Shown in pieces: positions 13,447 to 14,255 of a DNA stretch of 21,042 nucleotides. The translations under genes and the position numbers were made by a program. Origin of the DNA: Candidatus Borrarchaeota archaeon (GTDB lineage Archaea > Asgardarchaeota > Sifarchaeia > Borrarchaeales > Borrarchaeaceae); NCBI GenBank assembly GCA_016840645.1, contig JAEORY010000016.1, forward strand, positions 1 through 21,042, read 5' to 3'. The notes beneath the pieces were generated by a model that was given only the letters and a program-made list of their open reading frames with translations, had not been told where the DNA came from and did no database searches. Numbering within the stretch: the first letter of the stretch is position 1; each line of letters begins with the position of its first letter.

Positions 13447-14255
13447 ATGGAAGATAAAAAGTCGGTACCACCTCTTAAACTCATATCTGATAAAGGTATC
13501 CGATCTGATGGTCGCAAATTTGATGAATTAAGACCAATTCAAATGGAGATTGGTGTACTTAAAACGGCTGATGGGTCAGCCTATTTAGAGCAAGGAAGAA
13601 ATAAAATTTTCGCGGCTGTATATGGTCCACGAGAACTACACCCGCGTCATTTAGCTTTGCCAGATAAAGCTCGTGTAAGATGTACTTATCGAATGGCATC
13701 TTTCTCAGTAGAAGGCATGTAATTTCTTAAATCGCCTGCTGAAATGAAAGAAAAAGTCCTGCCCCAAGTAGAAGGGAACAGGAACTATCCATGGTCATTC
13801 GAGAATCATTGGAGCCTGCCATTTTTTCAATTATGTTTCCTCGAACCGCTGTAGATATTTATATCGAAGTTGTACAGGCGGATGGAGGAACGCGATGTGC
13901 TAGCATCACTGCCGCATCTTTAGCTCTTGCAGACGCAGGAGTACCTTTAAAAGATTTAGTAGCAGGATGTGCTGCTGGAAAAATTGAAGGGACACTTGTT
14001 TTAGATCTCAATGACACTGAAGACAAATATGGCGAGGCAGATCTTCCTGTAGCATATATCCCTCGAACAGAAGAGATTACATTGCTTCAAATGGATGGAT
14101 CGTTTTCACCCGAAGAGTTTGAAGATGCAATGAATTTAGCCATTACTGGCTGTAAAAATATCTACGAAATGCAAAGAGAAACATTGCAGAATAAATATGC
14201 AGTGATTCGCGATGAAACTGATTCTGAGGACGATATCTCCGAAGAAGGTGATTAA
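13447..14255 (+). CDS. rrp41: Exosome complex exonuclease Rrp41, interrupted by a probable 32-nt intron (joined exons 13447-13711 and 13744-14255)
   Basis: This is the catalytic RNase PH-type subunit of the archaeal exosome, which degrades RNA 3' to 5' by phosphorolysis in a hexameric ring with Rrp42. Read directly, the first frame stops after 91 codons at SVEGM, and the rest resumes in another frame. Joining the two exons gives a 258-residue protein with a family-typical middle, RMASFSVDERKSPAPSRRE, followed by PRTAVDIYIEVVQADGGTR and GEADLPVA with catalytic-position D188. The acidic C-terminal tail (DETDSEDDISEEGD) is also normal for the family. A single indel cannot explain the break, because the two frames do not overlap: frame one stops at 13720-13722 and the other has a stop at 13740-13742. 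The ATG has AAAGGAGG six bases upstream. rrp42 follows after 1 nt, so one essential operon carries this interruption. Confidence 0.9.
13712..13743 (+). other. Candidate bulge-helix-bulge intron in rrp41 mRNA (32 nt)
   Basis: The segment has stops in all three frames and its removal restores the Rrp41 frame. Its borders fold as an archaeal splicing-endonuclease substrate. Exon helix: UCUUUC (13699-13704) with GAAAGA (13746-13751). Central helix: CAGU (13706-13709) with GCUG (13738-13741), including one G-U pair. 5' bulge: AGA (13710-13712). 3' bulge: AAA (13742-13744), next to a U-U mismatch (13705/13745). Intron helix: AGGC (13713-13716) with GCCU (13734-13737), closing a 17-nt loop. Cutting after the second base of each bulge removes exactly 13712-13743 and rebuilds a GAT codon, giving FSVDERK. 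The fold was found by eye; splicing itself is inferred. Confidence 0.78.

What the first reader, a model, noticed from the sequence alone, without database searches (positions are those of the whole stretch)
13699..13751. A 32-nt bulge-helix-bulge intron in an archaeal exosome gene (rrp41)
Seen directly: rrp41 is split by 13712-13743, which has stops in all three frames (13720-13722, 13728-13730, 13740-13742), so no single indel repairs it. Deleting exactly 32 nt gives FSVDERKSPAPSRRE, the conserved family motif. Independently, the junctions fold into exon helix UCUUUC/GAAAGA, central 4-bp helix CAGU/GCUG, 3-nt bulges AGA and AAA, and intron helix AGGC/GCCU. Any symmetric cut in the bulges removes 32 nt; the usual cut after base two yields precisely the motif. 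Two unrelated tests therefore agree. Established knowledge: archaeal splicing endonuclease cuts such motifs in pre-tRNA, pre-rRNA and a few mRNAs, with cbf5 of Crenarchaeota as the known case. I know of no description for rrp41. The intron is tiny and lies in an essential gene, so splicing would set exosome output.
Basis: partly seen in the sequence, partly recalled or inferred. Interest (0 to 1): 0.93.

Follow-up and report, generated by a model that had tools for sequence, protein, structure and literature searches.

The report
Spliced mini-intron in Asgard exosome gene
In a group of Asgard archaea the gene for an RNA-degrading enzyme (Rrp41) is interrupted by a 31-33-letter insert that is predicted to fold into the shape cut by the tRNA-splicing enzyme, so these cells likely splice this messenger RNA; a 2020 paper knew such an intron in the coding sequence of only one archaeal gene, cbf5.

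Summary
The 32-nt insert at 13712-13743 splits rrp41 of a Borrarchaeum-like Asgard archaeon (class Sifarchaeia). It forms a bulge-helix-bulge (BHB): exon helix 6 bp, central helix 4 bp, two 3-nt bulges, intron helix 4 bp. The standard cut restores a full-length Rrp41 (365.6 bits, cut-off 318.7; the pieces score 113.3 and 206.6).

Comparison makes the case. Four of the five held Sifarchaeia genomes carry the insert at the identical site, 31, 32 or 33 nt long; junctions and BHB arms are invariant, only the loop varies. In a 5.8-billion-protein search the 18 closest hits are all shortened proteins of 153-157 aa. A second, unrelated 32-nt BHB insert lies 5 nt away in rrp41 of a distant Asgard (G088). 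Three of the Sifarchaeia and eleven other Asgard genomes have inserts in cbf5 where the known crenarchaeal cbf5 intron lies, with compensatory exon-intron base changes. Relatives encode two EndA homologues and mostly the ligase RtcB.

No RNA data were available, so splicing is inferred. Known kind, but a new gene and a new phylum.

The parts
13447..13711 (+). rrp41 exon 1 (Met to first letter of the Asp89 codon)
   Evidence: TIGR02065 profile positions 1-79 match the 5' ORF; spliced product passes the cut-off
13712..13743 (+). 32-nt BHB intron (removing 13713-13744 gives the same spliced sequence)
13744..14255 (+). rrp41 exon 2
   Evidence: TIGR02065 positions 96-230 match the 3' ORF from 13791; amino acids conserved from the first codon after the insert
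13699..13704 (+). exon helix, 5' strand UCUUUC
13706..13709 (+). central helix, 5' strand CAGU (exon 1)
13710..13712 (+). bulge 1 AGA; predicted cut after 13711
13713..13716 (+). intron helix, 5' strand AGGC
13717..13733 (+). intron loop: the part that varies in sequence and length among relatives
13734..13737 (+). intron helix, 3' strand GCCU
13738..13741 (+). central helix, 3' strand GCUG (intron)
13742..13744 (+). bulge 2 AAA; predicted cut after 13743
13746..13751 (+). exon helix, 3' strand GAAAGA (exon 2)
13791..14255 (+). ORF from an internal ATG, the form in which relatives' proteins are predicted
14257..15060 (+). rrp42, next gene, intact
   Evidence: NF003282, 335.5 bits against a cut-off of 280 (given ORF 14212-15060)

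Best explanation
The 32-nt insert in rrp41 is most likely an archaeal pre-mRNA intron: its ends form a bulge-helix-bulge that the cell's splicing endonuclease (EndA) would cut after the second base of each bulge, and a ligase, likely RtcB, would join the exons into an open Rrp41 reading frame. Shown here: the disrupted frame, the BHB-forming sequence, its conservation in relatives, and the presence of the enzymes' genes in relatives. Inferred: cutting, ligation and production of full-length Rrp41. Unspliced mRNA would give a 91-aa fragment ending before the SRR motif, so splicing is likely needed for exosome activity; any regulatory role is speculation.
For: Insert at the same nucleotide in G001 (Ca. 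Sifarchaeum marinoarchaea, 33 nt), G005 (33), G002 (Ca. Borrarchaeum weybense, 31) and G003 (Ca. B. yapensis, 32), absent in G006: 4 of 5 held genomes of the class. Unspliced, each is closed by a stop (window, G001, G002, G003; G005); spliced, all five are open. Of all 14-60-nt introns starting in about 210 nt around the site, only the frame-restoring one makes a BHB with arms of at least 3 bp in 4 of 5 sequences; the window has one further, weaker one. FSVDERK over the junction is the longest run of codons without any nucleotide change in the gene (7; the next two runs are 6), although 86 of 187 amino-acid-invariant codons vary. The 18 closest proteins listed (81-95% identity) are 153-157 aa; the other listed hits reach at most 71%, and no listed hit exceeds 70% for the spliced query. 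Independent BHB insert in rrp41 of G088. cbf5 inserts at the known crenarchaeal position in three of these Sifarchaeia. Two EndA homologues per intron-bearing genome; RtcB in 3 of 4 of them.
Against: No transcript or peptide evidence. Within Sifarchaeia the BHB pairs hardly vary, so rrp41 itself gives almost no covariation. A U-U mismatch and a competing minimum-energy register exist; the minimum-energy fold of the G088 stretch is not the BHB. BHB-like folds are common by chance genome-wide. The window's own genome is not held, so EndA and RtcB were found only in relatives; RtcB was not found in G001. Two EndA homologues are also present in the intronless G089 and in the thaumarchaeote G004, so they do not mark intron bearers. 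No spliced full-length version turned up among the listed predicted proteins.
Confidence: 0.93

Rival explanations
1. Split gene: two separately translated Rrp41 halves assemble, the second starting at the internal ATG 13791.
For: Predicted proteins of relatives are exactly such ORFs (ORF in the window).
Against: Codons 89-104 lie before that ATG and would not be translated, yet across 5 species they show five codons with synonymous changes and one with an amino-acid change. The BHB arms and junction are invariant while the loop drifts. The split would fall just before the conserved SRR motif.
Confidence: 0.03
2. Pseudogene or assembly error.
For: A frame-breaking insert is the usual sign of either; the named relatives are metagenome assemblies.
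Against: Same site in separately assembled genomes of several species with both exons strongly conserved; no second rrp41 copy in G001, G002, G003 or G005 at E up to 0.001 (the other matches there are exon pieces or 24-28% identical stretches).
Confidence: 0.01
3. Translational bypassing or stop-codon recoding carries ribosomes over the insert. Sec and Pyl recoding are described for Sifarchaeia (PMC9723677, passages).
For: Known principle; recoding occurs in this class; in the two 33-nt genes (G001, G005) reading one TGA as an amino acid would be enough to keep the frame.
Against: The 31- and 32-nt inserts of the window, G002 and G003 shift the frame, so recoding alone cannot bridge them. I saw no matching take-off and landing codons leading into the exon-2 frame (inspection). 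The structure is an EndA-type substrate with exon-intron pairing.
Confidence: 0.02
4. [quoted passage not shown]
For: BHB processing without coding splicing is reported in an archaeal mRNA.
Against: The predicted cuts restore exactly the conserved frame in all five Sifarchaeia sequences and in G088, which a destruction signal would not require.
Confidence: 0.02

Closest known systems
Crenarchaeal cbf5 pre-mRNA intron (Watanabe 2002, recalled and seen as a citation; Yokobori 2009, PMC2738675: abstract, results part 1 of 2 and passages read)
   Same: Tiny (16-44 bp there, 31-33 nt here), BHB junctions, cut placed between the second and third bulge bases, in a conserved RNA-processing gene; that paper ties it to a hetero-oligomeric EndA; also placed between letters 1 and 2 of an Asp codon.
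   Different: Different gene (exosome nuclease, not pseudouridine synthase), different phylum, full BHB rather than the mostly unconventional motif described there; spliced cDNA is reported for several cbf5 introns but not here.
cbf5 inserts of Asgard archaea (found here; no report found)
   Same: Three Sifarchaeia have both inserts (G002, G003, G005); same 5' bulge AGA.
   Different: By eye no sequence similarity to the rrp41 intron beyond the splice-site motif; the cbf5 insert occurs in more Asgard genomes (14 against 5 of 227).
Archaeal tRNA and rRNA BHB introns
   Same: Splice motif and, by inference, enzymes.
   Different: Substrate here is a coding mRNA.
[quoted passage not shown]
   Same: mRNA cut by EndA at BHB sites.
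   Different: Untranslated region; the coding frame is not involved.
Putative 12-bp introns in genes of an archaeal virus (Peng et al., seen only as a remark in PMC2738675)
   Same: Short insert in an archaeal protein-coding gene.
   Different: Splicing not demonstrated according to that remark; not compared here.

Membership tests
[quoted passage not shown] exact removal restores it | tested here: met
   Spliced 365.6 bits to TIGR02065 (cut-off 318.7); pieces 113.3 and 206.6
[quoted passage not shown]
   As a prediction; U-U mismatch next to bulge 2 and a competing register noted
[quoted passage not shown]
   5 of 5 intron-bearing Sifarchaeia sequences, window included
[quoted passage not shown]
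   rrp41 arms almost invariant; the unrelated G088 insert makes a BHB with other bases; compensation seen only in cbf5
[quoted passage not shown]
   Two EndA homologues in each of G001, G002, G003, G005. Catalytic-type subunit read in G001-G003, the His-lacking partner read in G001 only (catalytic roles recalled). Window's own genome not held; activity untested
[quoted passage not shown]
   In G002, G003, G005 and the intronless G006, not in the 1.8-Mb G001 assembly; window's own genome not held
[quoted passage not shown]
   No RNA data or assay available
Crenarchaeal-type cbf5 intron family | Lies in cbf5 at the catalytic Asp codon | tested here: not met
   This intron is in rrp41; separate Asgard cbf5 inserts meet it
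Group I or II self-splicing intron | Ribozyme core | tested here: not met
   32 nt; no Rfam match at gathering score in the window

The most novel reading that the evidence does not exclude
Asgard archaea have a whole class of mRNAs spliced by the tRNA-splicing endonuclease. rrp41 gained such introns at least twice, 5 nt apart, in separate lineages, and cbf5 carries them in at least three Asgard clades at exactly the crenarchaeal site, so coding-gene BHB introns either predate the TACK-Asgard split or home to fixed sites. Both targets are RNA-processing enzymes, so splicing could be a feedback switch tying tRNA-type splicing capacity to RNA modification and decay.
Probability: 0.5. Interest if true: 0.95.

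Novelty: new member of a known kind. Interest (0 to 1): 0.88.

Why it matters
A 2020 paper still counted cbf5 of Crenarchaeota as the only additional BHB intron, besides its own UTR case (PMC7714728, passage). An intron in an exosome gene, in Asgard archaea, gained at least twice by the simplest reading, would show that EndA-type mRNA splicing is broader and can arise anew. It would bear on how mRNA splicing evolved around the origin of eukaryotes, would explain why gene prediction shortens these genes, and makes intron gain, loss and possible regulation testable with two model genes.

Tried and rejected
Whole-genome work on the window's own organism was impossible. A BHB scan of 2,174,809 bases of B. 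weybense (about half of its 4.2 Mb) gave 5,434 strong BHB-like folds and 92 frame-restoring candidates, rrp41 among them; I looked by eye at 50 of the 67 with introns up to 90 nt and saw no other convincing case, but tested none by profile, and its cbf5 lies outside the scanned part. Fold energy alone was uninformative. Broken rrp41 genes in G595 and G607 look like small frameshifts elsewhere in the gene, judged from match coordinates only. tRNA introns in B. weybense could not be judged from the ARAGORN output. The bacterial-type promoter and terminator scan found no excess over shuffles. G194 and G174 each have a second cbf5 with a 17-19-nt insert on another contig; I suspect contamination and left both out of the counts of 14 and of the covariation.

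Limits: the match tables were cut, so genomes not listed were judged by best E-value only and an in-phase insert there could be missed; 35 of 227 Asgard genomes were re-searched for rrp41, 26 of 227 for cbf5, chosen by weak or multiple matches. In one search the search pattern itself required the Asp-codon position; the BHB test is the independent part. Of the 18 shortened proteins, 7 were read. The rrp41 tree used 39 rows chosen by me and has long branches, G088 among them. In one search the unspliced frame of G005 was set wrongly; its stop is taken.

Full report
WHAT IS THERE. The window codes for Rrp41 (13447-14255) followed by Rrp42. The Rrp41 frame stops at 13720-13722 and the rest of the protein continues in another frame. 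The two ORFs match the Rrp41 profile TIGR02065 at positions 1-79 and 96-230 (113.3 and 206.6 bits). Removing 13712-13743 gives a 258-aa protein scoring 365.6 bits over the whole profile, above the cut-off of 318.7. The junction sequence can form a BHB: exon helix 6 bp, a U-U mismatch, central helix CAGU/GCUG, 3-nt bulges AGA and AAA, intron helix AGGC/GCCU. The conclusion is unaffected, because neither exon frame is open across it.

CHANCE. With the exons held fixed, 62 of 200,000 random and 55 of 200,000 dinucleotide-preserving shuffles of the insert produce such a BHB at exactly this junction; 139 of 200,000 with looser rules. Free energy alone is weak (z -1.9), and BHB-like folds are common in a genome (5,434 in 2.17 Mb). 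The case therefore rests on position, frame and conservation together.

RELATIVES. One scan of genome contigs gave five loci; three are close relatives, Ca. Sifarchaeum marinoarchaea, Ca. Borrarchaeum weybense and Ca. B. yapensis, and all three have an insert at the same nucleotide; a thaumarchaeote (L004) has none, and L005 is a distant bacterial match. The window is 93-96% identical in DNA to B. yapensis and groups with it in the Rrp41 tree (97/82). Of the 5 held genomes of the class, 4 have the insert and G006 does not. Lengths are 33 (G001), 33 (G005), 31 (G002) and 32 nt (G003). CTTTCTCAGTAGAAGGCAT and GCCTGCTGAAATGAAAGA are invariant in these four and the window; changes lie in the loop. 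Unspliced, each gene meets a stop (G005); spliced, all five are open. Over the gene, 86 of 187 amino-acid-invariant codons vary in DNA, but FSVDERK at the junction does not vary and is the longest such run, 7 codons against 6 for the next two. Codons 89-104, between the insert and the internal ATG at 13791, hold five codons with synonymous and one with amino-acid change, which argues that they are translated.

A search of about 5.8 billion proteins with the exon-2 ORF (lengths up to 1.75 times the query allowed, so full-length Rrp41 could be found) lists as its 18 best hits (81-95% identity) only proteins of 153-157 aa; seven of them were read and begin at the internal ATG; the other hits of the 120 listed are at most 71% identical. 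With the spliced query no listed protein exceeds 70% identity. So no close relative with an uninterrupted gene appears in what these searches list.

A SECOND RRP41 INTRON. Of 227 Asgard genomes searched, 221 had a match. After re-searching 35 of them (29 with a match), one further gene was found split at almost the same place: G088, 53-61% identical. Its insert is also 32 nt, unrelated in sequence, between letters 2 and 3 of codon 87, 5 nt upstream of the Sifarchaeia site. Among all 14-60-nt introns starting in a 130-nt stretch, only this one makes a BHB (exon helix CUAC/GUAG, central GUUC/GAAU, bulges GCU and AAA, intron helix 8 bp), although it is not the minimum-energy fold; its standard cut gives FAVDERK and a protein of 321.0 bits, just over the cut-off. 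G089, the only other held genome of its family, lacks it. In the tree G088 joins G089 (100/99) and the intron-bearing Sifarchaeia form their own clade (100/100); G088 is a long branch. Three database proteins 81-85% identical to G088 start four residues before VDERK, which suggests that relatives of G088 are split too; their DNA was not seen. Nearest full-length proteins with a name are called Lokiarchaeota and Helarchaeota. Two independent gains is the simplest reading; an ancient intron with shift and many losses is not excluded. In 398 genomes of the phylum of G004 (Thermoproteota by recalled naming; 390 with a match) I saw no comparable case, with the table cut as stated.

CBF5. Testing the known case in the same genomes, I found cbf5 split in G002 (35 nt), G003 (31) and G005 (30), not in G006, G088 or G089; G001 had no match over the cut-off. 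In these three the BHB at the Asp codon came out of an open enumeration. Over 227 Asgard genomes (215 with a match at E up to 1e-15), 26 were examined. Further inserts lie in G007, G078-G085, G166 and G172, 14 genomes in all with the Sifarchaeia; they fall into at least three clades of the rrp41 tree, with G078-G080 not placed. Each is consistent with a site between the first and second letter of the Asp codon in GTLDP; for the eleven the pattern assumed that site and the BHB then fits in 10 of 11 (G082 fails at two pairs of the intron helix); with an exon helix of at least 3 bp also demanded, 9 of 11 (G081 fails too). [quoted passage not shown] In the 14 the central helix pairs in 56 of 56 cells, with pair 2 A-U in 9 and U-A in 5, and pair 3 C-G in 12 and U-A in 2; the intron helix pairs in 54 of 56 and the exon helix in 53 of 56. 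Swapping partners between genomes lowers the central helix from 4.00 to 3.37 and the intron helix from 3.86 to 3.13 of 4 pairs, and leaves the exon helix at 3.79. These counts are genomes, not independent events. The exon side of the central helix consists of codons, so this is covariation between coding sequence and intron.

MACHINERY. Two EndA homologues occur in G001, G002, G003, G005 and G088, but also in the intronless G089 and in the thaumarchaeote G004; G006 shows one. The first subunit was read in G001-G003; that of G001 aligns with 3p1z_B and keeps the His of GIDH, which reads Ala in the variant chain 3ajv_B. The second subunit, read in G001 only, lacks it. PMC2738675 links hetero-oligomeric EndA to relaxed substrates and mRNA introns. 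RtcB is in G002, G003, G005 and G006, not found in G001. Chemistry and catalytic roles beyond these texts are recalled.

PRIOR WORK. Searches showed no rrp41 intron and no Asgard mRNA intron in their listings; most subscription papers are not in that library. PMC7714728 (passage) calls cbf5 the only reported additional BHB intron. PMC2738675 (passage) mentions putative 12-bp introns in an archaeal virus. PMC9723677 (passages), on Sifarchaeia genomes, shows no occurrence of 'intron' or 'splic'.

VERDICT. A real, conserved BHB insert in rrp41, very likely a spliced intron; RNA proof is missing. Same kind as the cbf5 intron, new in gene and phylum, and part of a wider Asgard pattern.

Noticed in passing
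L235, L236, L233 and 11 other cbf5 loci (L245, L248-L255, L259, L260): cbf5 of 14 Asgard genomes carries a 29-41-nt insert at the catalytic Asp codon, the position of the crenarchaeal cbf5 intron; 13 of 14 form a BHB there (not G082), 12 of 14 if an exon helix of at least 3 bp is demanded.
   Followed up: yes
L264 (G014); also G035, G072, G074, G171 by match pattern: cbf5 interrupted near profile position 174 by a long insert within an open frame (two of the five show a stop in the match); in G014 it matches Intein_splicing and LAGLIDADG, so likely a Cbf5 intein.
   Followed up: partly
window 13707-13715 and 13767-13775: A 9-nt direct repeat AGTAGAAGG: once over the 5' splice site, once in exon 2 (SRR codons); kept in the relatives shown. 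It could compete for the intron's 3' end.
   Followed up: no
L271 (G194) and L272 (G174): A second cbf5 copy on other contigs with 17-19-nt inserts at the Asp codon; perhaps contaminating contigs of another archaeon.
   Followed up: no
L055, L056 (G002 contig 1, about 13.9-15.0 kb): A second RtcB match in two pieces, each in an open frame of 409 aa, in B. weybense.
   Followed up: no
G002 contig 7, minus strand, 143743-143811: tRNA-Pyl predicted by ARAGORN, in line with published Pyl recoding in this class.
   Followed up: no
window 10468-12090, 17681-18232, 3972-4352: O-phosphoserine-tRNA ligase (SepRS), an Arf-like GTPase and a Roadblock protein, in keeping with an Asgard origin.
   Followed up: no
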